A stretch of DNA of 64,000 nt. It comes from Catellatospora sp. TT07R-123. GTDB lineage: Bacteria > Actinomycetota > Actinomycetes > Mycobacteriales > Micromonosporaceae. The stretch is taken from the NCBI RefSeq assembly GCF_018327705.1, contig NZ_BNEM01000001.1, positions 1,550,001 to 1,614,000 on the forward strand. Direction: 5' to 3'. Positions 1 to 45,288 of this stretch are shown piece after piece (position 1 is the stretch's first letter; each line of letters starts with the position of its first letter). The notes under the pieces are model-generated. The model worked only from the letters and a program-made list of their open reading frames with translations. It did not search any database and was not told where the DNA came from. Both the position numbers and the translations under genes were made by a program.

Positions 1-1594
1 CGACGGTCAGGTACGGCGCCGGGGCCAGGATCTTCGCCACCTGCGGCGCGAACGACGGCGACGCGGTGAGCACCGCCGCGGCCGGTCCGTCGGCGACGAC
101 CTCGCCGTCGGCCATCACCACGACCCGGTCGGCGACGAGCGTGGCGAACTCGACGTCGTGCGTGGCCACGACCACGGCGTGCCCGCGCGCGGCCAGGGTG
201 TCGACGGTCGCGGCCAGGGCCTGCTTGGCGCGGTAGTCCAGGCCCCGGGTCGGCTCGTCGAGCAGCACCACGCCCGGCGTGACGGCCAGCTGCACCGCGA
301 GCACCAGCGCGAGCTGCTGCCCGGCGGACAGGTCGCGCGGATGGGCGGCCCGGTCGATGCCGGGCGCGATCGCGTCCAGCAGCGCCGCGGCGGCGCCGGG
401 ACTGCCGAGCACGTCGCCGTCGCGGTCTGCCTGGGCGAGTTCGGCGCCGACGGTGTCGAGGTAGAGCAGGTCGGTCGCGGTCTGCGGGACGAGGCCGACC
501 AGGGCGCGGGCACGCGCGGCCGACACCGACCTCGGGTCGGTACGCCCCGAGCCGTCCCGCACCGCCACCGTGCCGCCGTCGCGGCGCCCCGAGCCCTGCA
601 CCGCCCACAGCAGCGAGGACTTGCCGGACCCGTTGCGTCCCATCAGGGCGGTCACCTCGCCGCGCCGCAGGTCCAGGTCGACGCCGCGCACCGCGACGAC
701 GGGCCCGTGCCGGACGATGACGCCCCGTGCGGCGAGTTCCACCTGCTCGGTGGCGCGGCTGGTGCGGTGCGGGGGCGGGTCGGCGGGCAGCCGGTCGCGC
801 AGGTGCGCGGCGCGGCGGCGGGCGTCGCGGACCGACAGCGGGACCGGCGTCCAGCCCGCGTGCCGGGCCAGTTCGACCACGGGCGGCGCGACAGTCGACG
901 CGGCGAGTTGCGCGGCCGGGTCGCCGCAGCTGACGGTGCCGTCACCGGCCAGGTGGACGACCCGGTCGGCGTACGGGACGACGCGTTCGAGCCGGTGCTC
1001 GGCCAGCACCACGGTGATGCCGAGATCGTGCACGAGCCGGGTGATCGCGGCGAGGACATCCTCGGCACCGGTCGGGTCCAGCGCCGACGTCGGCTCGTCG
1101 AGCACCAGCACCCGCGGGTGGGCGGTGAGCGCGGCGGCGATGGCGACCCGCTGCTGCTGGCCGCCCGACAGCTGGTGCAGGCCGCGGTGGCGCAGCTCGG
1201 CCAGCCCGAGCAGATCGAGCGCCTCCTCCACCCGGGCGCGCATCACCCTCGGGTCCAGGGCCAGCTGCTCCATGCCGTACGCCAGCTCCTCCTCGACGGT
1301 GTCGGTGACGAATCCGGCGACCGGATCCTGTCCGACGACGCCGACGAGGTCGGCCAGCTCGCGCGGCGGGTGGTGGGCGGTGTCGCGCCCGGCGACGGTG
1401 ACCCGGCCGGTGAGCGTGCCGCCGGTGAAGTGCGGCACCAGGCCGTTGACCGCCCCGAGCAGCGTCGACTTGCCGGTGCCGGTGTGCCCGACGACCAGGA
1501 CCAGCTCGCCCTCGTCCAGGTGCAGGTCGACGTCGCGCAGCACGGGCACGGCGGCCCCGTCGTACGTGACGGACACGCGGTCGAATCGGATCAT
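1..1594 (-). CDS. ECF transporter double-ATPase (A/A' fused), 3' end cut by window edge
   Basis: Energy-coupling ATPase with two ABC cassettes in one chain; 531 codons are visible and the stop lies outside the window. Cassette 1 has Walker A GHTGTGKST, signature LSGGQQQRV and Walker B VLVLDEPTSALD. Cassette 2 has GRNGSGKSS, LSAGQQLAL and GVVLLDEPTRGLD. The start ATG at 1594 overlaps the stop of the T-component gene (ATGA), so the two are translationally coupled. Tandem cassettes next to a CbiQ-like T protein are typical of group II ECF importers for vitamins and metal ions. Here the genes lie downstream of a cobalamin riboswitch and B12-binder-like surface proteins, so cobalamin (or cobalt) is the likely substrate. 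No substrate-specific S-component is visible; it may lie just beyond the left edge. Confidence 0.93.
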   Translation of the reverse strand, partial: MIRFDRVSVTYDGAAVPVLRDVDLHLDEGELVLVVGHTGTGKSTLLGAVNGLVPHFTGGTLTGRVTVAGRDTAHHPPRELADLVGVVGQDPVAGFVTDTVEEELAYGMEQLALDPRVMRARVEEALDLLGLAELRHRGLHQLSGGQQQRVAIAAALTAHPRVLVLDEPTSALDPTGAEDVLAAITRLVHDLGITVVLAEHRLERVVPYADRVVHLAGDGTVSCGDPAAQLAASTVAPPVVELARHAGWTPVPLSVRDARRRAAHLRDRLPADPPPHRTSRATEQVELAARGVIVRHGPVVAVRGVDLDLRRGEVTALMGRNGSGKSSLLWAVQGSGRRDGGTVAVRDGSGRTDPRSVSAARARALVGLVPQTATDLLYLDTVGAELAQADRDGDVLGSPGAAAALLDAIAPGIDRAAHPRDLSAGQQLALVLAVQLAVTPGVVLLDEPTRGLDYRAKQALAATVDTLAARGHAVVVATHDVEFATLVADRVVVMADGEVVADGPAAAVLTASPSFAPQVAKILAPAPYLTV

Positions 1595-2706
1595 GCGACG
1601 GCTCCGGCGGGGACGGGACGGTGGCGCGGCGGTGGCGGTGGCGCGGCCAGCGCGGCCGCGGCGGCGAGCAGGATCGCGGCGGCGGGCAGCGCGGGCAGGG
1701 TCGGCCAGTGCAGCAGGTCCGTGCCGGCGGCCGGGTCGTAGCCGGTGCCCGCCGCGAGCACGAACGCGGCGGACAGGCCGCCGACCGCGACCGTCCATTC
1801 CGGCCACTGCCACGGATCGGGGCGGTAGCGGGTGCGCGAGACCCGGCGCCCGCCGAGGATCAGCCCGCCGGTGCACAGCACCGCCCCGGCGGCGAACCCG
1901 GCCGTGCCGACGGCGCCGGGGACGGTCGGGTCGAGCAGGCCGTACGCGCCGACGCACAGGCCGGTCATCCCGGTGAGCATGAGCGCGCCCGTGACCAGCC
2001 GCGACGTACGGGTGGCCGAACCGGTGCGGCCGTAGCCGCGCGAGTCCATCGCGGCGGCCAGCCGCAGCGACCGGTCGAGGGCGTCGTGCAGCACCGGCAG
2101 CGCGATCGCGCGCAGCGCCCGCAGGCCGCGGGTGCGCCCGGCGCGCAGGCGGCGGGCGCGGGCCACCCGCTGCACGCTCTCGACCAGCTGCGGGGCCACC
2201 GTCAGCGCGACGGTGACCGCGACGCCGAGCTCGTACAGGGCACCGGGCAGCACCCGCAGCGCCCGTTTCGGGTTGGCCAGCGTGTTCGCGGCGCCGATGC
2301 AGCACAGCAGGCAGGCCAGCCGCATGCCGTCCAGCGCGGCCGACAGCACGGCCTCGGCGGAGACGGGGCCGCCGAGCTGGATGCCCGCGTACCAGTCGGG
2401 GGTGGGCACCTGCGGCAGGGTGAGCAGGATGTGGTCGCCGGGGCCGGTGCCGGAGGCGAACACGGCCCGGAACAGCACCCGGATCGCGATCACGGTCAGC
2501 GCCAGCAGCAGGTAGTAGCCGAAGGCGCGGGCCCAGGGCGCGTCGCCCCGGCGCAGCGTCACCGCCAGCCCGAGCACCGCGAAGATCAGCGCCAGCAGCA
2601 GCGGGTTGCCGGTGCGGCTGGCCGCGGTGGCCAGGGCCAGCGCCCACAGCCACCACGCGACCGGGTGCAGCGCCCGGGGCAGCCGCGCGGCGGCCAGGCT
2701 AGTCAT
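1591..2706 (-). CDS. ECF transporter transmembrane T-component (CbiQ family)
   Basis: 371-residue membrane protein. The N-terminal half carries several hydrophobic helices, then the basic coupling region ARARRLRAGRTRGLR and the AMDSRGYG motif typical of CbiQ/EcfT proteins, which contact the ATPases. About 100 extra residues with further membrane segments follow and end in an Ala/Pro-rich tail. I chose ATG 2706 rather than the upstream in-frame ATG at 2745, because it overlaps the end of the preceding gene by 8 bases (ATGACTAG) and starts just before the first membrane segment. It is coupled by ATGA to the ATPase gene. Role inferred: membrane scaffold linking ATP hydrolysis to vitamin B12 or cobalt uptake. 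Confidence 0.9.
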   Translation of the reverse strand: MTSLAAARLPRALHPVAWWLWALALATAASRTGNPLLLALIFAVLGLAVTLRRGDAPWARAFGYYLLLALTVIAIRVLFRAVFASGTGPGDHILLTLPQVPTPDWYAGIQLGGPVSAEAVLSAALDGMRLACLLCCIGAANTLANPKRALRVLPGALYELGVAVTVALTVAPQLVESVQRVARARRLRAGRTRGLRALRAIALPVLHDALDRSLRLAAAMDSRGYGRTGSATRTSRLVTGALMLTGMTGLCVGAYGLLDPTVPGAVGTAGFAAGAVLCTGGLILGGRRVSRTRYRPDPWQWPEWTVAVGGLSAAFVLAAGTGYDPAAGTDLLHWPTLPALPAAAILLAAAAALAAPPPPPRHRPVPAGAVA

Positions 2707-3553
2707 CGGCGGCGGCGCGCCTGCGGCGTACCGCGACGACCGCACCCGTGCCGAGCAGCAGCACGATCGCGGCGGTGACCAGCAGCGGCACCGCCGTGCC
2801 CGGGTCCTGCGGCGCGGCGGCCCCGGTGGGCGCCGCGTCGACGATCGGCGGGACGTCCTCGGTCGGTGCCGCGGTCTCGCTCACCGAGGCGCTCGGCATC
2901 GCGGCCGGGGCCGAGGGTCCGGCCGAAGTGGACGCTGCGGCGGCCGAGGCGGACGGTCGCGCGGTGGACGCCGAGGGCCGGGCCGTGGTCGGGCGCGGTT
3001 TCGGGGTGGGCGAGCCGATGGGGCTGGTGTTGCGGGCGCGCACGCTGTCCGGGCTGAACCTCGGCCTGCCCTGGCTGCCGTCCGTGGCCGTGGCGCCGAA
3101 CGTCCACAGGTCGACGCTGCCGGGTTTCGGGTGGTAGCCCATCGCGCCGAGCTGCGAGTACGACCACGAGTCCTGCCCCGGATCGGCGTGCCAGTACGAC
3201 CAGTACGCCGTAGCCGGGGGTGTCAGCACGCACTTCTCGGTCGCCGAGGTCGGATACTGCGTGCCGCCCTGGTAACCGGAGTAGCCGATGCGGCACACGA
3301 ACGCCGGGCCGTCGTGCTGGGTCCCGGCGGTCTTCCAGCCGCCCTGGTTGAGCAGCTGGTATCCGGTCGTCGGGGTGGTGCCGCAGGCACGCAGCAGCGG
3401 CCCGCCCCAGTGGCTGAAGTCCACCGCCAGGATCACCCCGGAACTGGTGGTGCACTTCCCGACCGGCTGCGGCGCGGCCGCGGCGGGCGCGCCGGGCGCG
3501 AGCATCACCGCCGCGAGCAGCACCAGCGCCGCGACCGAGCCGCGCCGGTTCAC
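2699..3553 (-). CDS. Membrane-anchored beta-domain protein, intrinsic-factor/DUF4430-like
   Basis: 284 residues: signal peptide (about 1-27), a Cys-containing domain (about 30-165), a Ser/Thr/Pro/Ala stalk (about 170-245) and a C-terminal membrane helix followed by RRRR. The domain shows VDFSHWGG, GPAFVCRI, TPPATAYWSYWHA and GSVDLWTFGA. This order resembles the DUF4430 beta-domain found at the C-terminus of transcobalamin and intrinsic factor, with the YWSYW stretch as best landmark. From memory it also matches what databases call the SCO2322 family. It is paralogous to the secreted protein at 6617-7090. GTG start at 3553 overlaps the stop of the alpha gene (GTGA). Inferred role: beta half of a surface cobalamin binder. 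Function is not proven by sequence alone. Confidence 0.8.
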   Translation of the reverse strand: MNRRGSVAALVLLAAVMLAPGAPAAAAPQPVGKCTTSSGVILAVDFSHWGGPLLRACGTTPTTGYQLLNQGGWKTAGTQHDGPAFVCRIGYSGYQGGTQYPTSATEKCVLTPPATAYWSYWHADPGQDSWSYSQLGAMGYHPKPGSVDLWTFGATATDGSQGRPRFSPDSVRARNTSPIGSPTPKPRPTTARPSASTARPSASAAAASTSAGPSAPAAMPSASVSETAAPTEDVPPIVDAAPTGAAAPQDPGTAVPLLVTAAIVLLLGTGAVVAVRRRRAAADD

Positions 3554-4839
3554 CGGCCGCCGCCCTCGGTCCGGCGCCGCAGGCCGATGAGCAGCGCCAT
3601 CCCGGCCACGATCAGCACCAGCGCGACCGCGACGATCGCCGTCAGCGGCAGGCCGGTGACCGGCAGCCCTCCCCCGGCACCGGTCGGCGACGCCGACGGC
3701 GAGCCGCCGGTCCGCGACGGGGTCGGCGAGCCCGCGGACGGCGACGGCGAGCTGCCGGCACGCGACGGCGACGGCGACGCGGCGGACGGCGAGGGCGAGG
3801 CGGCGGGCGTGTGGACGTCGCGCAGCAGCGTGCCGAACGAGATCCCGGTCGCGCCGCTGACCGCCTGCGTCGAGGAGCGCAGGTCCGAGCCGTCGGTGCC
3901 CAGTGCGACGTCGAATCCGCCGTCGCTGTTCTGCTGCTGGGCCAGGAAGGCGCGTGCCTTGCCGAGCTGCGCGGCGTACGTGTCGGCGCGCAGCGACAGG
4001 CCCTGCACCGCCAGCGCGGTGGAGTTGGTCGAGTCACCGGCCGCGCCCGGGAAGCCGCCGTGCGCCTTCTGCTGCCCGGCGATCCAGGCCAGGGCCGCGT
4101 CCACCGCCGAGTCGTGGCCGCCCGCCAGGACCAGGGCCATCGCGGCCATCGCGGTGCTGTCGACGTCGCGGTCCTGGTCGGTCGCCGGGATCAGGCTCGG
4201 GAACGATCCGTCGGCGCGCTGGAGGCCGAGCAGGAACGTGACCGGGCTCGCCGCGTCGGCGGCCCGCCCGGCGCGCAACTGCGCGACCACGCCGAGGACC
4301 TGCCCGAACGTCGAGGTGGCCCAGGCGTAGTTGCCGGGTCCGGCGCAGCCGGCGGCCTCGTCGGTCTTCGCGCAGGTCACGTCCTTGAGGGCGGCGATCA
4401 GGTCGTGACCGCCGAAGGCGCCCGGGTCGTACCCGGTGACCTGCGCCAGCACGGCGACCTTGCCGATGGCGCCGCCGGAGGCGAACTCGGTGCCGATGCC
4501 GAGCCAGGCGTCGACGGTGAACCCGCCGTCGCCGACGACCCCGCCGGTGCGGATGAACTCGGTGACCGCGCGCAGCCGCGCGTCGTCGGACCCGGTCGCG
4601 GCCAGCGCGAACGCCCCGTCGATGCTCAGGCCGAAGTCGGGGAACCCGGGAAACGACTCGTAGTAGCGGCCGTCCTGGAGATTGGCCGGGGCGACCAGGT
4701 ATGCCACACCTTTGGCCAGGTCGGGGCCGGACTCCGCCGGGGCCTGCGCGAGCGGGCGGGCGGCGGCGGGGGCCGCGACGGCGAACGCGGCGACGGCGGC
4801 GAGCAGGGCGGCGGCCGCGCGGCGGCGGATGACGGGCAT
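3550..4839 (-). CDS. Sortase-anchored (LPVTG) alpha/alpha-barrel protein, intrinsic-factor alpha-domain-like
   Basis: 429 residues. Signal peptide (1-28), then a domain of about 300 residues with prenyltransferase/squalene-cyclase-type repeats, seen as QRADGSFPS, QQKAHGGFPG and QQNSDGGFD, each followed by an Ala-rich helix. A Ser/Pro-rich stalk of about 60 residues leads to LPVTG, a hydrophobic helix and RRR, a classical cell-wall sorting signal. The same alpha6/alpha6 fold forms the alpha domain of transcobalamin/intrinsic factor. ATG 4839 was chosen over the longer frame starting at 5079, because it follows GGGAG, begins a good signal peptide, and the extra 80 codons overlap the riboswitch. 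First gene of the minus-strand operon; coupled by GTGA to the beta protein. Probable extracellular cobalamin capture subunit. Confidence 0.85.
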   Translation of the reverse strand: MPVIRRRAAAALLAAVAAFAVAAPAAARPLAQAPAESGPDLAKGVAYLVAPANLQDGRYYESFPGFPDFGLSIDGAFALAATGSDDARLRAVTEFIRTGGVVGDGGFTVDAWLGIGTEFASGGAIGKVAVLAQVTGYDPGAFGGHDLIAALKDVTCAKTDEAAGCAGPGNYAWATSTFGQVLGVVAQLRAGRAADAASPVTFLLGLQRADGSFPSLIPATDQDRDVDSTAMAAMALVLAGGHDSAVDAALAWIAGQQKAHGGFPGAAGDSTNSTALAVQGLSLRADTYAAQLGKARAFLAQQQNSDGGFDVALGTDGSDLRSSTQAVSGATGISFGTLLRDVHTPAASPSPSAASPSPSRAGSSPSPSAGSPTPSRTGGSPSASPTGAGGGLPVTGLPLTAIVAVALVLIVAGMALLIGLRRRTEGGGR

Positions 4840-4944
4840 GAGGGCTCCCGGGGGTGAGCGGCGCTGGCGCGGACACCGACCGCCCGCGGAAACGCTGCCC
4901 CGGGTGCTCAGGCTCCGCGCCGTGGACCACGACGACGCTGGTGG

Positions 4945-5052
4945 TTTGCTGCGTTCCAGCCAGGTAATCCGACTCGTCCAAAAAGGACCTACGGCTGCGG
5001 GCCAGTGCCGGGATTCGACCGGCTTCCCCTGAGGTGCTGGAACGCAGCCATC
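4945..5052 (-). promoter_or_regulatory. Cobalamin riboswitch upstream of the anchored alpha/beta-ECF operon
   Basis: On the minus strand the conserved core GGGGAAGCCGGTCGAATCCC is followed by GGCACTGGCCCGCAGCCGTA and ends in a B12-box-like AGTCGGATTACCTGGC. A perfect 13-bp P1 stem (4948-4960 with 5036-5048) closes the element. It lies about 105 bases upstream of the start at 4839. The compact size (about 105 nt) fits a short actinobacterial B12 aptamer. Family knowledge: such switches repress cobalamin uptake genes when B12 is plentiful. Confidence 0.88.
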
Positions 5053-5130
5053 CGACCACATGTGGTCTGCAAGCGTCAACGCGGGGGCGGTGTCACGTAC
5101 GCAACTCGCGCGAAACCGGGGGCATGGCTT

Positions 5131-5242
5131 AGCGTGAGGTCGTCATCGCGTAGGGGAACCCGGTGTGAGCCCGGGGCTGACGCGCAACGGTATGGACGCG
5201 ACCACCATCACGTCCGGAGCCCGAACACCTGCCGGTGACGCT
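5131..5242 (+). promoter_or_regulatory. Second cobalamin riboswitch, upstream of the secreted alpha/beta pair
   Basis: Core GGGGAACCCGGTG, TGAGCCCGGGGCTGACGCGC and AACGGTATGG is followed by a B12 box GGAGCCCGAACACCTGCCGG. A short P1 stem can form between AGCGT near 5131 and ACGCT near 5238. It faces away from the minus-strand riboswitch, about 80 bases apart, so both divergent operons are set to sense B12. It lies about 335 bases upstream of the alpha-protein start at 5577, an unusually long leader that also holds a hairpin and a possible small ORF. Confidence 0.82.
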
Positions 5243-5281
5243 CCACCCTGCGGATACCGTCCACGCGTCTTGGGCCCGGCC

Positions 5282-5316
5282 GCCTCGCTCCAGGTCTGGC
5301 GAAGACCGGGCGAGGC
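5282..5316 (+). other. Leader hairpin downstream of the plus-strand riboswitch
   Basis: GCCTCGC (5282-5288) pairs with GCGAGGC (5310-5316), with an inner GGTCT/AGACC helix. The hairpin sits between the aptamer and a GAAGGAG ribosome-binding sequence, where an expression platform would be expected. No U-tract follows, so sequestration or Rho-type control is as likely as intrinsic termination. Confidence 0.4.
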
Positions 5317-5348
5317 ACGCCGCTCCCATGGCGCCCAGAAGGAGTGCC

Positions 5349-5522
5349 ATGTCCCCCTTTCACGTCCCGGCCGCCGCGTGCGCCGGGCCGGCGCGGGCCT
5401 CGCGATCGCCCTCGCCCTCCTGGCCCGGTGCCAGGCTTGTACCGCCGGCCGCCACGGGCCGCCGGCAGCGATACGAAGGCAATCAGCCGGCCCCGGCCGG
5501 CGGCATGACCCACGGCGCCTGA
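5349..5522 (+). CDS. Possible 57-residue leader ORF, unrecognised
   Basis: ATG 5349 is preceded by AGAAGGAGTGCC, a stronger ribosome-binding site than most genes here have, and the reading frame keeps high third-position GC. The product is Ala/Pro/Ser-rich with no signal peptide, membrane helix or motif that I recognise. It ends about 55 bases before the alpha gene. It could be a translated leader of the B12-controlled mRNA, a decayed gene or a chance ORF. Another frame in the same stretch shows a short signal-peptide-like segment (AGLAIALALLA), which hints at a degraded secreted gene. Confidence 0.25.
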   Translation: MSPFHVPAAACAGPARASRSPSPSWPGARLVPPAATGRRQRYEGNQPAPAGGMTHGA

Positions 5523-5576
5523 CTCCACTTTCGACACTGGCCCCGGCATGCCGCCGCGGGCCGGAAAGGCACACCC

Positions 5577-6605
5577 ATGATCCGCACCATCGTGCGGCGG
5601 CTAGCCGTGCTCACCGCCGCCACCGCCGCTCTCGCCCTGGTCGCCACCGCTCCGGCCGCCGCCGCCCCGACCCTGAACCGGGCCGACGCGGCGGCGGGCT
5701 GGCTGGCCCGCCAGCTCGTCGACGGCGAGCGCTTCGAGGTCGTGTTCGACGGCGTCGCCTACGCCGACCAGGGCCTGACCATCGACGCGGTGTTCGCGTT
5801 CGCCGCCTCGAAGACCGGCGGCAGCTACCGCGACGCCGCCCTGTCGTGGCTGGCCGAGCCGGGCACGCTCACCGGGTACATCGGCGACGGCACCGAGGCG
5901 TACGCCGGGGCCACCGCCAAGCTCGCGCTGGCCGCCGAGGTCACCGGCGCCGATCCGGCCGCGTTCGGCGGCGTCGACCTGGTCACGCGGCTGCGCGGCC
6001 TCCAGGCGACCTCGGGCCGGTTCAGCGACCGGTCTGCCTGGGGCGACTTCAGCAACTCGTTCACCCAGTCACTGGCCGTCATCGCGCTGGACCGCACGGC
6101 CGCGGGCGCACCCGCCTCGGCGGTGTCGTACCTGGCCGGGACCGCCTGCGCCGACGGCAGCTTCCCGCTCTACCTGGAGCAGCCGGTCTGCACCGGCGAC
6201 GTCGACGCGACCGCGCTGGCGGTGCAGGCGCTGCGGGCCGCGGGCGACCACGTCCACGCGTACGGCGGCCTGACCTGGCTGGTCGCCCAGCAGCAGGCCG
6301 ACGGCGGTTTCGCCTCGGCCGGGGTCGCCAACGCCAACAGCACCGGTCTGGCCGCCCAGGCGCTGCAGTCCAGCGGCCGCCTGCTGGCGGCGGCCAAGGC
6401 CCGCACGTTCCTGCGCGGGCTCCAGGTCGGCTGCGCCGGTGCGGCCGCCGACCGGGGCGCGATCGCGTACACGGCCGGGGCCTTCGACCCGGCGACCGCC
6501 CCGCGCGCGACCGCGCAGGCCGTGCTCGGCCTGACCGGCCGCGGCTACGCCGACCTCGACGCGGCGGGTTCCAGCCCGGCCGCCCCCACCCTCGCCTGCC
6601 CGTGA
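5577..6605 (+). CDS. Secreted alpha/alpha-barrel protein, intrinsic-factor alpha-domain-like
   Basis: 342 residues with a signal peptide (1-29, ending APAAAAP) and a single domain of alpha-helical repeats, with TACADGSFPLYLEQP and QQQADGGFASAG as prenyltransferase/transcobalamin-type landmarks. It is a paralogue of the LPVTG protein at 3550-4839 but ends right after the domain: no stalk, sorting signal or membrane helix, so it should be released. RBS-like GGAAAGG precedes ATG 5577. The beta protein follows 11 bases downstream. Located behind the second B12 riboswitch. Inferred role: diffusible alpha half of a B12 scavenger; an alternative is a wall-associated enzyme of the terpene-cyclase superfamily, but no DxDD catalytic motif was seen. 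Confidence 0.83.
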   Translation: MIRTIVRRLAVLTAATAALALVATAPAAAAPTLNRADAAAGWLARQLVDGERFEVVFDGVAYADQGLTIDAVFAFAASKTGGSYRDAALSWLAEPGTLTGYIGDGTEAYAGATAKLALAAEVTGADPAAFGGVDLVTRLRGLQATSGRFSDRSAWGDFSNSFTQSLAVIALDRTAAGAPASAVSYLAGTACADGSFPLYLEQPVCTGDVDATALAVQALRAAGDHVHAYGGLTWLVAQQQADGGFASAGVANANSTGLAAQALQSSGRLLAAAKARTFLRGLQVGCAGAAADRGAIAYTAGAFDPATAPRATAQAVLGLTGRGYADLDAAGSSPAAPTLACP

Positions 6606-6616
6606 AAGGACCCGTC

Positions 6617-7090
6617 ATGAACCGCCGTCTCGGCCGGGCGCTGACCGCCCTGCTCAGCATGCTCACCCTGTCCACCGGCGCCGTGCTGGTGCAGGCTCCC
6701 GCCGCGCACGCGGCCGCCTGCTCCGGCAGCACCGGCGTCACCGTCGTCGTCGACTTCGCCTCGCTGGGCGGCGGCGTCGTCACCGCGTGCGCGCCCGGCG
6801 ACCCGACCAGCGGCCTGACCGCGCTGACCGGCGGCGGGTTCACCGTCGCCGGCACGCAGCGCTGGGGCCTGGCGTTCGTCTGCCGCATCAACGGGCTCCC
6901 GACCGCCGCGCAGCAGGCGTGCGTGAACACGCCGCCCGCGACGGCGTACTGGTCGTACTGGCACGCCAGCACCCACGGCGCCGCCTGGACGTACAGCTCG
7001 TCGGGCGCCAGCAGCTACAACCCGGCGCCGGGCACCGTCGAGGGCTGGGCCTTCGGCGCGGGCGCGGCACCGTCCATCACCGCACCCTGA
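6617..7090 (+). CDS. Secreted beta-domain protein, intrinsic-factor/DUF4430-like
   Basis: 157 residues: signal peptide (1-33, AAHAAA) followed directly by the beta domain, with TVVVDFASLGGG, GLAFVCRINGLP, TPPATAYWSYWHAS and GTVEGWAFGAG. It aligns along its whole length with the anchored paralogue at 2699-3553 but lacks the stalk and anchor. Four cysteines in conserved positions suggest disulfides. GAAAGGA lies 6 bases upstream of ATG 6617. Last gene of the plus-strand B12 operon, closed by a strong hairpin. Likely partner of the secreted alpha protein. The order alpha then beta repeats the order of domains inside human intrinsic factor. Confidence 0.8.
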   Translation: MNRRLGRALTALLSMLTLSTGAVLVQAPAAHAAACSGSTGVTVVVDFASLGGGVVTACAPGDPTSGLTALTGGGFTVAGTQRWGLAFVCRINGLPTAAQQACVNTPPATAYWSYWHASTHGAAWTYSSSGASSYNPAPGTVEGWAFGAGAAPSITAP

Positions 7091-8132: not shown

Positions 8133-10697
8133 TCATCCGATCTCGGTCCGCACCGCCAGCGAGCCGGTGTTGTCGGCGTAGAAGCCCGGCTCGCCGTGGA
8201 ACGACGACGCGTCGGCGAACCCGACGACCAGCACACCGGCGCCCGCCGGGGCGACGAACCGCTGCAACGTGCCGGTGCCGGTGCGCCCGTCGCCGATCGC
8301 GAACAGCTCGCCCAGGCCCGGCCGCAGCTCGGCCAGCTCGCCCTGCCCGGTCACGTCGACCGCGGGCGGGCTCTGGCCTGCGGCCCCGGCCGGCAGGAAC
8401 ACCCCGACCAGGAACAGCGTCCGGTTGTGGTGCACGATGCCGGAGATCCCGTTCAGGCCTGTGATCTCGGTGTCCGGGTACTGCGTGCCGCCGTCGGGGC
8501 CGTCGGCGGGCTCCCCGCCCGCCGGGCCGAGCGCACCCGTGACCAGCGGGAACGTCGCCACCTTGCCACCGGAGACCGGCAGCACCAGCGGACGGGTGCC
8601 CGCCCCGCCCGGCAGCGACGGCACCGCGGCCGAGCCGCCCAGGTACACGTCGGCGGTGGCGGGCAGCAGCACGGTGCCGCCCGGCCGCGGGCCCGCCGCG
8701 AACGCCTGCCCGGCCCGCGCCGACAGGGCGAAGGCCGGGTGGCCGGTGTGGCTGACGTCGTACACGCAGTCGGCCAGCGCGGCCGGGGCGGTGACCCCGG
8801 CACCGGCGCAGATCGCCTGCGCCGCGGCGGGGTCGGGTTCGGGGCCGGACTCCCGCTGCGGGAACGCCCGGTCGGTGTAGCCGGCCGTGCTCCGGCCCTC
8901 GGGGTAGGTGAACAGCGAGGTCGCGTCGGTGACCCGCCAGCTGTCGGCGAAGGCGGGGTAGAGCGCCTCGTACGGCGGCTCGCCGTCGGGCAGCGCCGCT
9001 CCGTCGCGTACCCGCAGCTCCTTCGCGAACAGGCCCACCGACGCGGCGTGCGCGGGCACCGGGTCGACCGACACGTCGAGGCCGACGCCGGCGACGGCGG
9101 AGACGTACACCGTGGAGCCGTCCGGCCAGGTCACCGAGACGACCGGGCCGCCGTCGCCCTGCCCGATCCGCACCTGCCCGCCGTGGTCCAGCCCGGTCAT
9201 GGGGTCCGGGCGCGGCACCCCGCCGACCAGCACCGCGACATCGGCCGGGGTCAGCTGCACCTCGACCCTGTCCCCGGCCACGTCCATCGCCACCGCCGTG
9301 TTCACGGCCAGATGCTTCGAGTCGCGGTACGGCTGCTGCCGGACCTGCACCGTGAACCCGCCCGCCGGATCCTGCAGCGCGGTGAACTCCCCCGCCGCCT
9401 GGAAGTCGTAGCGGCGCCCGCCCAGCGTGAGCACGTGCGGCTCGCCCGTCGAGGCGGGGCACTCACCATCCGAGCTGCACACCGGGTCGGTCGGCTGCGA
9501 CGGGCGGCACTCGGGCGGCAGGATGTGGTCGCCGTAGTAGTTGCGCGGGGGCATGCCGAGCGCACGGCGCAGCAGGTTCTGCGCCTGCGTGGCGTGCACC
9601 TCGTTGATGCCGATCCCGGTGTGCTTGCCCGACGGGGTGATGCACTCGTGCAGGTCCTGGATGCCGTGCTCGCCCTGGCTGTCCTCCCACGCGTGGAACA
9701 GCTCGTGGTAGAGCGTGGTGCACGGGTCGGCGCTGCCGCCCGCGCCCTCGTAGGTGTGGCGGTCGTCGGGGTTCCAGAAGATGTACATCTCGGACGTGCT
9801 GCTGCCGCCCTCGTGGTTGCTGCCGCTCGTCGGGAAGATGGTCACGGTCACGCCGTCCCCGAGAACCGTCGGCAGGATCCCGGCCGGGTCATGTCCGGGC
9901 TGCTGGAGCACACCGATGCAGCCGTCGTACGCCGCCTGGATCGACGGGTCGCGGATGACGACCACCGCCTCGGCCGGCTGCTGCGACCAGCCCGGCGCGG
10001 ACAGCACGGCGAGGACGATCAGCGTGGCGGCGGCCGCGCCCCGGCGGCGGCGGCGTAGCAGCCAGACGACCAGGATGAGCAGCAGCAGCGCCCCGACGGC
10101 GACGGCGGCCCACAGCAGCCGGCCGCGCGTGCCCGCCGCCTGCGGCTGAGCGGCCGGGGCGGCGATCACGGCGGCACCGGTGACGACGCACGGCGGCGGT
10201 CCGGATCCGACGGGGATCGGGATCGCGTAGGTGACGGCGAGCTCCAGCGGGACACCGGCGCGGACCGGGTACAGCAGCCCGGTGGGCGCGACCGGCCCGG
10301 TGTAGGCGATGTTCTCCAGCGCGTGGCCGGTCGGCCCGAGCGGCACGACCGCCGGTCTCAGCTCGACGGACTGGCCGGGTTCCAGCGTCCGCAACTGCTG
10401 CCTGATGGCTGTCGCCAGCGGCTCGTCGAACCCCGGGCTGAACACGATCGGGGCCGCAGCCTGACCGCTCTGGGCCAGCGCGGTGATCGTCAGCGTGCCG
10501 AGCTCGGTCGCGGCGACCTGGCACGGCTCGATGCCGCCGTTGGTCAGGGTGACGACCGGGGCTAGCGGATCGGTGGCGCGTACCGCGACCGTCAGGCCGC
10601 CGTCGGAGGCGTGCGCCGGGGCGGCCGTGGCCAGCATGGCCGAGCCGAACAGCAGGGCGGCGGTGAACCCGCGCGCCGTCATCGTGAGCCACCGCAT
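8133..10697 (-). CDS. Large extracellular HExxH metalloprotease-like protein with von Willebrand D domain
   Basis: 854 residues. Signal peptide (1-30), an extracellular domain (to about 190), then a membrane helix (LLWAAVAVGALLLLILVVWL), RRRRRG and a second hydrophobic stretch that looks like another signal peptide (ending PAEA). After this comes a putative zinc peptidase region with YHELFHAWED (HExxH) and a downstream NEVHA glutamate, resembling NleD/M91-type peptidases. Then a VWD-like region begins at GEPHVLTLGGRRYDF. Two membrane spans would put both halves outside the cell. ATG 10697 follows GGAGGGACCTGCG, better than the upstream ATGs at 10754 and 10712. Stands alone; substrate unknown. 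Confidence 0.8.
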   Translation of the reverse strand: MRWLTMTARGFTAALLFGSAMLATAAPAHASDGGLTVAVRATDPLAPVVTLTNGGIEPCQVAATELGTLTITALAQSGQAAAPIVFSPGFDEPLATAIRQQLRTLEPGQSVELRPAVVPLGPTGHALENIAYTGPVAPTGLLYPVRAGVPLELAVTYAIPIPVGSGPPPCVVTGAAVIAAPAAQPQAAGTRGRLLWAAVAVGALLLLILVVWLLRRRRRGAAAATLIVLAVLSAPGWSQQPAEAVVVIRDPSIQAAYDGCIGVLQQPGHDPAGILPTVLGDGVTVTIFPTSGSNHEGGSSTSEMYIFWNPDDRHTYEGAGGSADPCTTLYHELFHAWEDSQGEHGIQDLHECITPSGKHTGIGINEVHATQAQNLLRRALGMPPRNYYGDHILPPECRPSQPTDPVCSSDGECPASTGEPHVLTLGGRRYDFQAAGEFTALQDPAGGFTVQVRQQPYRDSKHLAVNTAVAMDVAGDRVEVQLTPADVAVLVGGVPRPDPMTGLDHGGQVRIGQGDGGPVVSVTWPDGSTVYVSAVAGVGLDVSVDPVPAHAASVGLFAKELRVRDGAALPDGEPPYEALYPAFADSWRVTDATSLFTYPEGRSTAGYTDRAFPQRESGPEPDPAAAQAICAGAGVTAPAALADCVYDVSHTGHPAFALSARAGQAFAAGPRPGGTVLLPATADVYLGGSAAVPSLPGGAGTRPLVLPVSGGKVATFPLVTGALGPAGGEPADGPDGGTQYPDTEITGLNGISGIVHHNRTLFLVGVFLPAGAAGQSPPAVDVTGQGELAELRPGLGELFAIGDGRTGTGTLQRFVAPAGAGVLVVGFADASSFHGEPGFYADNTGSLAVRTEIG

Positions 10698-10860
10698 CGC
10701 AGGTCCCTCCATCGAGGACGATCCTCGGGCGGGCACAGCGTACGGAGCGCGCATGAATCACGTCCATCGCTGCGGAGTCGGCTTGCCGACGATCACCGGG
10801 AGGCAGTCCGACTGCGCGGCGATGGACGGGCCCGACCTCGCCGGCACGGTCGGCGGCCGG

Positions 10861-41531: not shown

Positions 41532-41550
41532 TTAGGTTAGCCTAACCTTT
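41532..41550. promoter_or_regulatory. Iron box before the NRPS, inside the end of the exporter gene
   Basis: TTAGGTTAGCCTAACCTTT (plus strand) matches the consensus at 17 of 19 positions. It forms the last six sense codons and stop (KVRLT-stop) of the exporter gene and ends 5 bases from the NRPS ATG. Confidence 0.88.
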
Positions 41551-43322
41551 GTTTCAGTGAAAGCCGGTGTCCGCGCCTGCCACGCCCGCCACAGCGCGGC
41601 ATACCGGCCCTCGGCCGCCAGCAGGTCGTCGTGGTGTCCTTCCTCGACGATCCGCCCGTCCTCCATGACGCACACCCGGTCGGCGGTCGCGGCCTGCGTC
41701 AGCCGGTGCGCCACGACCAGCGCGGTGCGCCCGGCCGTCGCGGCCGCCGCCGCCCGCTCCAGCACCCTGGCCCCCTGGCTGCCCGCCTCGGCGGTCGCCT
41801 CGTCCAGCACCACGACCGCCGGATCGGCCAGCACCAGCCGGGCCAGCGCCACCTGCTGCGCCTGCGCGGCCGTCAGCGGGTGCCCGCCCTCGCCCACCAC
41901 CGTGGCCAGCCCCTCGGGCAGGTCAGCCGCCCAGTCCAGCGCGTCCACCGTGGACAGGGCCGCGCGCAGCTCGCCGTCGGTCGCGCCGGGCCGGGCCAGC
42001 CGCAGATCCTCGGCCAGCGGCCCGGCGAACACCCGCGTCTCCTGCGTCACCATCGCGATGCGCCGCCGCAGCAGCGGACCGAGCCCCGCCAGCGGGACGC
42101 CGCCCGAGCGCGCCGTCCCGGCCTGCGGCCGCAGCACCCCCGCCGCGATCGCCGCCAGCGTCGACTTGCCCGCCCCGGTGGTCCCCACCAGCGCCACCCG
42201 CTCCCCGGGCGCCAGGCGCAGGGTCACCCCGTGCAGCACCGGCACCCCCGGGGCGTACCCGAACACCACGTCGGCCAGTTCCAGCGACGCGTCGGCCGGC
42301 TCGGCCACCGCGACCGGCTCGGCGGGGTCCGGGATGGCCACCACGCCGACGAGCCGGGCCAGGCTCGCCCCGGCCAGCTGCACCTCGTCGAACATGAACA
42401 GCAGCATGCCGATCGGGTTGAACAGCCGGTGGAACAGCACCGCCGCGGCGGCCGTCTCCCCCACCGTCAGCGCGCCGTCGCGCACCAGCAGGAACCCGAC
42501 CACCAGGATCGCCGACAGGCCGAAGAACTCCGCCCGGTTGACCCGGGCCACGAACCTGGTGAACAGCGTGAACACCGAGACCGACAGGTCGCGTCTGGCC
42601 GCCGACGCGGTCTCCAGCCCGCCCATGCGCCAGCCCAGCAGCCGGTAGGCGTGCACGGTGCGTACGCCGTGCAGCGACTCGACCAGGTGCTGCGACGAGT
42701 CCGCCCCCGCGCGCCGTTCCCGCGCGTAGATCGGCGACGACCGGGGCAGATACCAGCGCAGCGCCACCGCGTACAGCGGCACCGCGACCGCGCCGGCCAG
42801 GCCCAGCCGCCAGTCCAGGCCCGCCATCGCGGCCAGGCTGAGCACGCCGAGCAGCACCGACGTCGCCATCATCGGGATCACGTCGGCGACGGCCTTGCCG
42901 ATCACGGTGGCGTCGCTGCCGACCCGCGACAGCAGGTCGCCCTGCCCGGCACCCTCCACCGTGGTCGAGGGCAGCGTCAGCACCCGGGCCAGCACCCGCT
43001 CGCGCAGCTCGGCCAGGACCGCCGCGCCGATGCGCCCGGTCAGATACGTCCCGAGCCCGGTCGCCAGGCCCCCGACGACCGCGCAGCCGACCAGCACCGC
43101 CGCGACCCCGCCGATCTCCGCGCCCGGGCCACCGGCCCGCACCCGGTCGACGAGCACCCCGAGGGTGTACACGGTGGCCACCCCGGCCGCGGCCCCGGCC
43201 GCTCCGGCGGCCAGCGCCCCGAGCAGGCCCGGCCAGCGCGAGCGCAGCGCCGCGAACAGGTAGCCGCGGCTGTCGCGGGCCGAGGCGATCGGGAGCACGG
43301 CGGGGACGGGTGCGCCGCTCAT
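41532..43322 (-). CDS. ABC exporter half 2, with intact Walker motifs but degenerate signature
   Basis: 596 residues. Type I exporter: membrane domain with about six helices (1-320), then a nucleotide-binding domain with Walker [10 protein letters not shown], Walker [13 protein letters not shown] and His switch VAHRLTQ. The signature is LTAAQAQQV instead of LSGGQ. ATG 43322 overlaps the partner's stop (ATGA), so they are made as a pair. The partner has the opposite defects, which implies a heterodimer with one catalytic site. Its position between mbtH and the NRPS, under iron boxes, suggests siderophore export. Its C-terminal codons are also the NRPS iron box. Confidence 0.93.
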
Positions 43323-45043
43323 CGCAGCACCGCCCGCCGGTAGGCGTCCTGGGTGCGCGACAGCTCGTCGTGCGTACCGGCGGCGACCGCGCGGCCGCCG
43401 TCGACCAGCACCACCCGGTCGGCGACGGCCAGCAGCGCGGGGCTGCTGGTGATGACGACGGTGGTCTGCGCCGCCGGCGCGGCCGGGTCTGCCGGGTGGC
43501 GCAGGGCGCGCAGGCCCCGGGCGATGGCGTGCTCGGTGACCGCGTCCACGGCGGTGGTCGGATGGTGCAGCACCAGCAGCAGCGGCCGGGCCAGCAGCGC
43601 GCGGGCCAGCGCCAGGCGCTGGCGCTGCCCGCCGGACAGACTCGCGCCGCGTTCGGCGACCGGGTGGGCCAGCCCGCCCGCGGCGGCCTGGAGCACCTGG
43701 TCGGCGGCCGAGGCCCGCAGCGCCTCGGCCAGCACGTCCGGGTCGGGCTCGCCGCGGTCGGCGCCGACGGTGAGGTTGCTGCCGATCGTGCCGGTGAACA
43801 GGTCCGGGTGGTGCGGCTCGGCGTGCAGCGGCCAGCCGTCGGGGCTGTGCTGCCCCAGCGGCGCGGCGCCCAGCAGCGCGTGGCCCCGGTAGTCGTCGGG
43901 CGGCACCCGGCCCGACAGCACCGCCGCCAGGGCGTCGCCGTCGGTGGCGCGGGTGGTGACGACGGCGACGAACTCGCCGCCGCGCACGTCGAGGTCCAGT
44001 CCGGACAGCGTGGCGTAGGTGAGCCCGGTCAGCCGCAGCTCCGGCTCGGGTGCGGCGGCATCGGCCGGGGCCTCGGGCAGCACGGCCGGTGCGGCCAGCA
44101 CGGCCGCGATCCGGTTGGCCGAGCCGCGGGCCTGGGCGACCCAGCCCGGGATGACCGCGAGCAGGCCCATCGGCTCCATCAGGAACTGCGCCAGCCCGAT
44201 CACGGTGATCAGCTCGCCGACCGAGATGTCGCCGCGCAGCGCGAACCATCCGGCCAGGACCGCGGCGGCGCAGGCCAGCAGCGCGCTGCCGGTGCCGGAG
44301 GCGGCGGCGTAGGCGCCCTGCGCGCGGGCGGCGCGGACCATCGCCACCCGCGACCGGCCGGAGACCTCGCGGTAGCGGTCGGCGGCGGCGCCGGTGGCAC
44401 CGATCCCGGCCAGCGGCCGCAGGCCCGACACCAGGTCGGTGGCGACCGCCGTGGCCTCCCCGGCGAGTTCCTGCTGCGTCTCGGCCCGGCGGGTCAGCGC
44501 TGGCGTGGCCGCTTGCAGGGCCAGCAGCACCAGCGGCGTGCCGACCAGGACGGTCAGGCCCAGCGGCACGTCGATGGTGATCAGCGCGGCCGCGCTGATG
44601 GCGACGGCGGTGACCGCCCCGACGACGCGGGGGATGTAGTCCAGCACGTACGAGGTCTGGTCGGTGTCGGCGGTGGCGACGCTGAGCAGGTCGCCGGTGG
44701 CCTGCTCGGTGCGCAGGCCCCGGGGGCGCAGCACGGTGGCCGCGATGTCCAGCCGCAGCAGGTGCGCCTCGTCGGCGATGGCCCGCATGAGCTGCCGGGC
44801 GCCGAACCGGTACGCCATGGTCAGCACGGTGAACAGCAGCCCCAGCACGGCGATCCACCGGGCCAGGGCGTACCCGTCCCCGGTGGCCACGGCCCGGTCG
44901 ACGATCACGCCGATCAGGATCGGGACCAGGGACTCGCAGACCTGGTGCGCTCCGATGAGGGCGGAACCGGCCGACAGCCGCCGCCGGTTGCGTACGACGG
45001 TGCGGCGCAGGACCGCCCCGCCGGAGTCGACAGCCGTCGCCAT
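43319..45043 (-). CDS. ABC exporter half 1, with intact signature but lost Walker A/B residues
   Basis: 574 residues. Six-helix membrane domain (about 1-310) and an ATPase domain in which Walker A reads VVTTRATDGDAL (no Gly-Lys-Ser/Thr) and Walker B reads LLLVLHHPTTAVDA (Asp-Glu replaced by His-His). The signature LSGGQRQRLALARAL is perfect. The reading frame is intact, so this is specialised rather than decayed. ATG 45043 lies 9 bases after the mbtH stop; a longer frame overlapping mbtH (to 45214) is unlikely because its first 57 codons read as shadow. Heterodimer with the next gene; inferred siderophore exporter. Confidence 0.92.
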   Translation of the reverse strand: MATAVDSGGAVLRRTVVRNRRRLSAGSALIGAHQVCESLVPILIGVIVDRAVATGDGYALARWIAVLGLLFTVLTMAYRFGARQLMRAIADEAHLLRLDIAATVLRPRGLRTEQATGDLLSVATADTDQTSYVLDYIPRVVGAVTAVAISAAALITIDVPLGLTVLVGTPLVLLALQAATPALTRRAETQQELAGEATAVATDLVSGLRPLAGIGATGAAADRYREVSGRSRVAMVRAARAQGAYAAASGTGSALLACAAAVLAGWFALRGDISVGELITVIGLAQFLMEPMGLLAVIPGWVAQARGSANRIAAVLAAPAVLPEAPADAAAPEPELRLTGLTYATLSGLDLDVRGGEFVAVVTTRATDGDALAAVLSGRVPPDDYRGHALLGAAPLGQHSPDGWPLHAEPHHPDLFTGTIGSNLTVGADRGEPDPDVLAEALRASAADQVLQAAAGGLAHPVAERGASLSGGQRQRLALARALLARPLLLVLHHPTTAVDAVTEHAIARGLRALRHPADPAAPAAQTTVVITSSPALLAVADRVVLVDGGRAVAAGTHDELSRTQDAYRRAVLR

Positions 45044-45051
45044 CCCCGGGG

Positions 45052-45288
45052 TCAGTTCGCGGTCGCCGCGGCCGCCATGCGCTCGCGCAGGCTCCGCGGA
45101 CGCAGGTCGGTCCAGTGCTGGTCCACATAGTCCAGGCAGGCCTGGCGGCCCGTCTGCCCGTCGGCGCCGAACACGACGGTCCACCCGGCGGGCACCTCCT
45201 TGAAGGTGGGCCACAGCGAGTGCTGCTCTTCGTCGTTGACGAGCACGAAGAACGTCGCGGCGTCGTCGTCGAACGGGTTGGTGGACAT
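45052..45288 (-). CDS. MbtH-like protein
   Basis: 78 residues. NPFDD at the start, then [20 protein letters not shown] and [14 protein letters not shown], the three invariant-Trp layout of MbtH proteins. These bind NRPS adenylation domains and aid their folding and activity. ATG 45288 follows CTAGGAGGCGCCCC. First gene after the iron box and followed by the exporter pair and the NRPS, so stoichiometric supply with the synthetase is expected. Confidence 0.97.

What the first reader, a model, noticed from the sequence alone, without database searches (positions are those of the whole stretch)
1591..7090. A bacterial split intrinsic-factor: paired alpha and beta B12-binder-like proteins, anchored and free, with an ECF importer
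Seen: two proteins with alpha/alpha-barrel repeats and two with a DUF4430-like beta domain, arranged alpha then beta in two divergent operons, each behind a cobalamin riboswitch; one operon continues into ECF T and A components. Known: intrinsic factor and transcobalamin consist of an alpha6/alpha6 barrel plus a beta domain that clamp cobalamin between them. Inference: this is a Gram-positive surface capture system using the same two-domain clamp on separate chains, feeding an ECF importer. I know of no experimental description.
Basis: partly seen in the sequence, partly recalled or inferred. Interest (0 to 1): 0.88.

Follow-up and report, generated by a model that had tools for sequence, protein, structure and literature searches.

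The report
Split bacterial cousin of intrinsic factor
A soil actinomycete carries two pairs of secreted proteins whose predicted shapes match the two halves of the animal vitamin B12 carriers, made as separate chains, switched by B12-sensing RNA and encoded next to a membrane importer, which suggests a B12 capture-and-import system that can now be tested.

Summary
Two divergent operons lie behind cobalamin riboswitches 43 bases apart. The minus operon encodes alpha (LPVTG-anchored), beta (membrane-anchored), EcfT and a double EcfA; a likely S-component lies just left of the window. The plus operon encodes an unanchored alpha and beta.

Burroughs et al. 2007 already predicted B12-scavenging SLBB/toroid proteins in CbiQ/CbiO operons. 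Not in what I read of it: naturally separate alpha and beta chains, an unanchored pair, a circularly permuted beta. Cobalamin binding is untested. Verdict: new variant of a known kind, most likely a two-chain cobalamin clamp feeding an ECF importer.

The parts
1..1594 (-). EcfA, double ABC ATPase (two ATPases on one chain); its C-terminus lies left of the window
   Evidence: L003:12967-14595, 543 aa, PF00005 E 1.7e-48 with two stretches
1591..2745 (-). EcfT (CbiQ-type); the likely start is an internal ATG about 39 nt downstream (M of MTSLAAARLP), overlapping the beta stop
   Evidence: PF02361 E 4.8e-13; start by reading the translation
2699..3553 (-). beta-A: secreted beta protein, C-terminal membrane anchor (TM + RRRR); beta-grasp domain at 3059-3463
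   Evidence: SCO2322_fam E 1.2e-5, below cut-off; AF2 pLDDT 83.2, best match transcobalamin beta domain; anchor
3550..4839 (-). alpha-A: secreted alpha/alpha toroid, Pro/Ser-rich stalk, LPVTG sortase motif, TM, RRR; 429 aa
   Evidence: PF00432 E 1.6e-11; LPVTG + TM; 429 aa as listed
4941..5056 (-). cobalamin riboswitch of the minus operon
   Evidence: RF00174 39.2 bits, E 2.1e-6
5100..5250 (+). cobalamin riboswitch of the plus operon
   Evidence: RF00174 34.7 bits, E 4e-5
5577..6605 (+). alpha-F: secreted alpha/alpha toroid without anchor, 342 aa
   Evidence: SCO2321_fam E 1.2e-31, below cut-off; alpha profile E 1.9e-33; no anchor
6617..7090 (+). beta-F: secreted beta protein without anchor, 157 aa; domain at 6716-7084 (not modelled itself; fold by homology to beta-A)
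   Evidence: beta half-profiles E 7.7e-24 and 9.4e-19; 50% identical to beta-A over the domain; ends at the domain, as do L082_2503m, L145_3565m, L064_8895m, L085_74p, L098_534p and L063_4389p

Best explanation
A vitamin B12 capture and import system. When cobalamin is scarce the two riboswitches allow expression (inferred from riboswitch identity). Alpha (an alpha/alpha toroid) and beta (a beta-grasp domain of the transcobalamin type) are exported as separate chains. Cobalamin is clamped between them, so the heterodimer forms around the ligand, as animal intrinsic factor and transcobalamin do between domains of one chain (inferred). The anchored pair holds cobalamin at the cell surface and passes it to the S-component of the co-encoded ECF transporter, whose T subunit and double ATPase drive uptake (inferred). 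The unanchored pair extends capture away from the membrane, as a secreted or wall-diffusing scavenger that hands cobalamin on (inferred, least certain). Shown by computation: genes, riboswitches, anchor features, ECF T/A/S, predicted folds, conserved association. Not shown: ligand binding, complex formation, transport.
Confidence: 0.68

Rival explanations
1. Same clamp, other ligand: the pair and the ECF importer take up cobinamide, other cobamides or corrin precursors rather than cobalamin itself, and the riboswitch only reports corrinoid status.
For: Cobalamin riboswitches also govern precursor and cobalt uptake genes (established knowledge); a TC-beta structure with cobinamide exists (PMC5599065 abstract); Burroughs 2007 wrote 'B12 or its precursors'; the host keeps CobS, needed for salvage.
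Against: VIA rows 1-13 and 15 of the beta model are all from the animal cobalamin carriers. Selectivity cannot be read from these data.
Confidence: 0.15
2. No obligatory heterodimer: beta alone is the corrinoid binder, and alpha is a spacer, wall scaffold or partner-docking toroid.
For: Four riboswitch-T-A-S loci (L070, L071, L073, L075) have a permuted beta and no room for an alpha, and L066 has two betas without a significant alpha; isolated human TC-beta was crystallised with CNCbl (PMC5599065 abstract); the beta next to EcfT is a separate chain in the seven loci of the commonest kind of layout that I looked at (L085, L086, L087, L096, L098, L113, L114).
Against: Core alpha and beta types co-segregate and the two are fused in both orders; the four loci without room for alpha all have the permuted beta, not the window's type.
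Confidence: 0.13
3. Alpha is an enzyme (terpene cyclase or prenyltransferase, as databases name it) and the operon makes or imports something unrelated.
For: Best Pfam, PDB-sequence and VIA matches of alpha are prenyltransferase/squalene cyclase toroids; a DVDSTA stretch resembles the cyclase DXDD motif (recalled, not tested).
Against: Alpha-A is exported and wall-anchored, behind a cobalamin riboswitch, beside ECF T/A/S and a transcobalamin-type beta domain, and its relatives are fused to that domain. In that stretch both window alphas lack the last Asp (DVDS, DVDA; sequence read).
Confidence: 0.03

Closest known systems
Animal intrinsic factor / transcobalamin / haptocorrin
   Different: Two chains in the window; wall or membrane anchors; membrane importer instead of an endocytic receptor; no sequence-level match; binding untested.
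Transcobalamin-like SLBB clade of Gram-positive bacteria, DUF4430 PF14478 (Burroughs et al. 2007, PMC1796856)
   Same: Secreted or anchored, associated with toroids, in operons with CbiQ/CbiO, second paralogous SLBB protein in the operon, hosts usually short of B12 synthesis genes, proposed B12 scavenging. Here 8 of 12 fetched DUF4430 loci of other Actinomycetota have an EcfT- or EcfA-like ORF within about 1.5 kb.
   Different: DUF4430 model does not hit; beta is its own family; naturally separate alpha and beta chains; paired anchored and unanchored sets; permuted beta in the SCO2322 branch.
NCBIfam SCO2321_fam / SCO2322_fam (NF053823 / NF040672)
   Same: Both window alphas match the first (E 6.8e-16 and 1.2e-31) and both betas the second (E 1.2e-5 and 5.1e-6); the SCO2322-type gene is followed by the same kind of EcfT in L033.
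   Different: All four below the curated cut-offs; SCO2322-type beta has its two halves in swapped order. No function is given in those model names; the one paper found that names SCO2321 calls it hypothetical and uses only its signal sequence (PMC9237094 passages).
ECF-CbrT of Lactobacillus delbrueckii (PMC5997447)
   Same: ECF-type importer for corrinoids.
   Different: Shared (group II) ECF module there, dedicated T and double A here; no extracellular alpha/beta proteins appeared in the passages I read; S-component not sequence-similar at the level tested.

Membership tests
Animal cobalamin-binder family (IF/TC/HC, PF01122) | alpha/alpha toroid domain | tested here: met
Animal cobalamin-binder family (IF/TC/HC, PF01122) | beta-grasp beta domain with hairpin insert | tested here: met
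Animal cobalamin-binder family (IF/TC/HC, PF01122) | both domains on one chain | tested here: not met
   Separate genes in the window; met in fusion relatives
Animal cobalamin-binder family (IF/TC/HC, PF01122) | PF01122 sequence profile | tested here: not met
   No hit for the window alphas at E<=1; 4 of 30 members of A2 (17 with an alpha domain), best E 0.017
Animal cobalamin-binder family (IF/TC/HC, PF01122) | binds cobalamin | not testable with these tools
   needs purified protein
DUF4430 (PF14478) | PF14478 profile match | tested here: not met
   0 matches in the own genome; none for either beta at E<=1
[quoted passage not shown]
SLBB superfamily, transcobalamin-like clade (fold level) | remote sequence homology to DUF4430 | tested here: inconclusive
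   N-halves probability 75.9, E 2.3e-5; C-halves probability 2.0, E 0.024; with the narrower profile, full domain, P 0.036 local and 0.18 global
SLBB superfamily, transcobalamin-like clade (fold level) | operon with CbiQ-like and CbiO-like genes | tested here: met
ECF transporter with its own module | EcfT, two ATPases and an S-component encoded together | tested here: met
   PF02361; PF00005 twice; PF12822 E 8.4e-7 but 29.6 bits against a cut-off of 30.7; set present in 19 of 20 loci
ECF transporter with its own module | corrinoid specificity of the S-component | not testable with these tools
   closest NCBIfam is the folT family, far below cut-off
SCO2321_fam / SCO2322_fam | curated NCBIfam score cut-offs | tested here: not met
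   58.2 and 110 bits against 300; 26.9 and 25.7 against 85

The most novel reading that the evidence does not exclude
The unanchored alpha/beta pair is a secreted proteinaceous corrinophore: two chains that are apart without ligand and snap together around cobalamin outside the cell (ligand-induced heterodimerisation), then dock on or exchange with the anchored pair that feeds the ECF importer. In the SCO2322 branch the beta partner has become circularly permuted and in some genomes does the catching without alpha.
Probability: 0.28. Interest if true: 0.85.

Novelty: new variant of a known kind. Interest (0 to 1): 0.64.

Why it matters
How Gram-positive bacteria catch B12 outside the membrane is poorly known (my judgement; the ECF-CbrT passages I read name no extracellular capture protein). 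If right, Streptomyces and relatives carry a natural two-chain version of the intrinsic factor/transcobalamin clamp, on the chromosome beside its importer, in genetically tractable hosts. It gives a natural counterpart to cleaved IF and to separately made TC domains that still assemble around cobalamin, a handle on the bacterial roots of the animal B12 carriers, and function candidates for protein families now named only after locus tags or as 'prenyltransferase/squalene oxidase repeat' proteins.

Tried and rejected
Direct Pfam identification of beta as DUF4430 failed. The first profile-profile test with a narrow beta profile (Neff 1.6) was weak: local P 0.036, global P 0.18; a broader beta set raised the N-half but not the C-half. 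Profile search of solved structures by sequence found toroid proteins and one short chance-like hit, no transcobalamin. VIA-align on the fusion listed only toroid folds in its 50 rows. The thought that beta-F lost an anchor through a stop codon was dropped: the same end point recurs in L082, L145, L064, L085, L098 and L063_4389. A search of 400 genomes of the phylum gave no answer; 61 genomes of the order (13 with a match to beta-A, several weak) and 148 of the class were searched instead. Alignment A1 misplaced the betas on the alpha domain and was not used further. Papers: searches listed no experimental paper on this system; the library holds only openly licensed PubMed Central papers, so an unheld paper is possible, and most listed papers were seen as listings only.

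Rows and limits: L078 gave a spurious second hit that stayed in the H2 profile (its short partner half was filtered out), one low-complexity L067 hit stayed in H1 and H2, and beta-A entered twice (window and L003). Of 30 SCO2322 loci, 25 passed the motif filter. The trees hold 17 chosen loci and 6 of the 17 alpha-beta fusions; they are 'quick' trees with long rows flagged (L078, L065, L064_7498, L081, L062). The 20 loci were picked by me from the hits; L076 and L081 were not rescanned for sub-threshold riboswitches. Controls of the CbiC and CbiJ searches ring in 7 and 3 of 14 control genomes, so absence of CbiJ is the weaker evidence.

Full report
WHAT IS THERE. The window is bases 1550001-1614000 of contig 1 of a 9.17 Mb genome. 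The best of the 75 named loci found with the beta alignment is Catellatospora tritici, 91% over the beta domain. Two cobalamin riboswitches (RF00174, both above gathering score) lie back to back at 4941-5056 (-) and 5100-5250 (+), the only matches at gathering score in the window. On the minus strand follow alpha-A (3550-4839), beta-A (2699-3553), EcfT (1591-2745, PF02361), a 543-aa double EcfA that runs off the window, and an S-component candidate (L003:12170-12967, PF12822 E 8.4e-7, just under its cut-off) directly outside it. On the plus strand follow alpha-F (5577-6605) and beta-F (6617-7090). Alpha-A ends in LPVTG, a membrane helix and RRR; beta-A in a membrane helix and RRRR; alpha-F and beta-F have no anchor. 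Signal peptides were judged by eye.

SEQUENCE FAMILIES. Alpha-A is a prenyltransferase-type alpha/alpha toroid (PF00432 E 1.6e-11); alpha-F is recognised only by SCO2321_fam, below its cut-off. The betas hit no Pfam model at E<=1, DUF4430 included; they hit SCO2322_fam below cut-off, beginning at its position 7. A newer Pfam entry, PF28005, is precomputed on many beta homologues; I could not see its name. 970 beta homologues score E<=1e-3 among 1190 candidates.

ALPHA AND BETA BELONG TOGETHER. All 120 proteins listed by the third homology search, made with such a fusion as query, are fusions: 101 beta-alpha-alpha, 17 alpha-beta, 2 beta-alpha. In the alpha search 10 of the 120 listed carry beta, 100 are single alpha and 10 double alpha; in the beta search all 120 listed are beta only. 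The third ranking favours fusions, so it shows that they are many, not what share they form. Trees of 40 beta and 39 alpha domains give three matching types among the well-placed rows: type F (the window's plus-strand pair and kin), the type next to EcfT (the window's anchored pair and the alpha-beta fusions), and the first beta and first alpha of Streptomyces. Exceptions: L062 is mixed, L087 has three alphas, L132 has two betas and one detected alpha, and L064_7498, L065, L078 and L081 are long rows with unsure places. Type F is not uniformly free: in the window, L082, L145, L064 and one L063 pair it has no anchor, but the second L063 pair is anchored. Of 75 named loci, 42 have exactly beta, alpha, alpha, beta, T, A, S. 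67 hold an S hit; of the other eight, seven are loci cut short at 3.0-8.8 kb and one (L134) is full length.

REGULATION AND NEED. In 20 loci from 19 other genomes, picked from beta hits, T-A-S is present in 19 (not L076). A cobalamin-class riboswitch lies upstream on the operon strand in 9 at gathering score and in 8 more below it, E 0.00023-0.042; L066 had none, L081 one on the other strand only, L076 none at gathering score. Alpha is less constant: a toroid hit at E<=1e-3 is found in 13 of 20; L067 (0.005) and L066 (0.042) are unsure; L070, L071, L073, L075 and L076 have none, and in the first four of these the 630-1090 bases between riboswitch and EcfT hold the permuted beta and no room for alpha. 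In the own genome CbiC and CbiJ, two corrin-ring enzymes, give no match (controls ring in 7 and 3 of 14), while CobS and B12-dependent methionine synthase are present: a probable corrin auxotroph that uses B12, as Burroughs et al. noted for hosts of such proteins. It has five cobalamin riboswitches, two of them here; one other precedes a BtuF-looking lipoprotein and one a ribonucleotide reductase, both read by eye.

CIRCULAR PERMUTATION. In SCO2322-type betas (25 of 30 loci passed the motif filter) the YW..W half comes first and the VDF..C half second, the reverse of the window betas and of DUF4430. Half against half: window-type N-half with SCO2322 C-half probability 92.9, E 3.8e-7; window-type C-half with SCO2322 N-half probability 98.7, E 4.9e-16; the wrong pairings 0.45 and 2.4. 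Independently, NF040672 hits open frames of G166, G186, G202 and G284 with its two halves in the order opposite to the model, in all four (coordinates). SCO2322_fam matches 67 of 148 genomes of the class, 48 over cut-off.

HOW IT MOST LIKELY WORKS. Low cobalamin opens both operons; alpha and beta are exported; cobalamin brings the two chains together; the surface pair hands it to the S-component; ATP drives import. [quoted passage not shown] Binding, complex formation and transport are inference, and the loci without alpha show that beta may suffice in the permuted branch.

WHAT IS KNOWN. Burroughs et al. 2007 (passages and section 7 part 1 read) predicted that secreted or anchored transcobalamin-like SLBB proteins, often fused to alpha/alpha toroids, cooperate with them in binding B12, sit in operons with CbiO- and CbiQ-like genes and scavenge B12 or precursors, often with a second SLBB paralogue. 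That is the same kind of system. Not in the parts I read: separate alpha and beta chains as partners, the actinomycete beta family, cobalamin riboswitch control, paired anchored and unanchored sets, and permutation. No experimental paper was listed in searches; the only paper naming SCO2321 borrows its signal sequence (PMC9237094, passages).

VERDICT. New variant of a known kind, interest 0.64.

Noticed in passing
L032-L061 (SCO2322-type betas); G166, G186, G202, G284: Circular permutation of a transcobalamin-type beta-grasp domain between SCO2322_fam and the window's beta family, both in the same kind of operon.
   Followed up: partly
L070, L071, L073, L075: Riboswitch, permuted beta, EcfT, EcfA, S without an alpha gene in between: perhaps a beta-only version of the system.
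   Followed up: partly
L020, L022, L024, L025, L026, L029, L030, L031: In other Actinomycetota classical DUF4430 genes sit near EcfT- or EcfA-like ORFs in 8 of 12 fetched loci.
   Followed up: partly
own genome G000 (C2:317833, C1:3319531, C2:4357029): Three further cobalamin riboswitches; the one at C2:4357029 before a BtuF-looking lipoprotein and the one at C1:3319531 before a ribonucleotide reductase, read by eye.
   Followed up: partly
L081 (G235:C1:3646000-3659000): A beta-T-A-S-alpha layout whose only riboswitch hit at gathering score is on the opposite strand.
   Followed up: no
window 5251-5576: A 326-base leader between riboswitch and alpha-F with no Rfam match at gathering score; it may hold the expression platform.
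   Followed up: no
window 8133-10754 (-): 873-aa ORF that by eye resembles a secreted protein with a von Willebrand type D domain (GEPHVLTLGGRRYDF); not searched.
   Followed up: no
window 19087-41526 (-): Single ORF of 7479 aa with a 1198-aa ORF upstream of it (41532-45128), perhaps a giant nonribosomal peptide or polyketide synthase; not searched.
   Followed up: no
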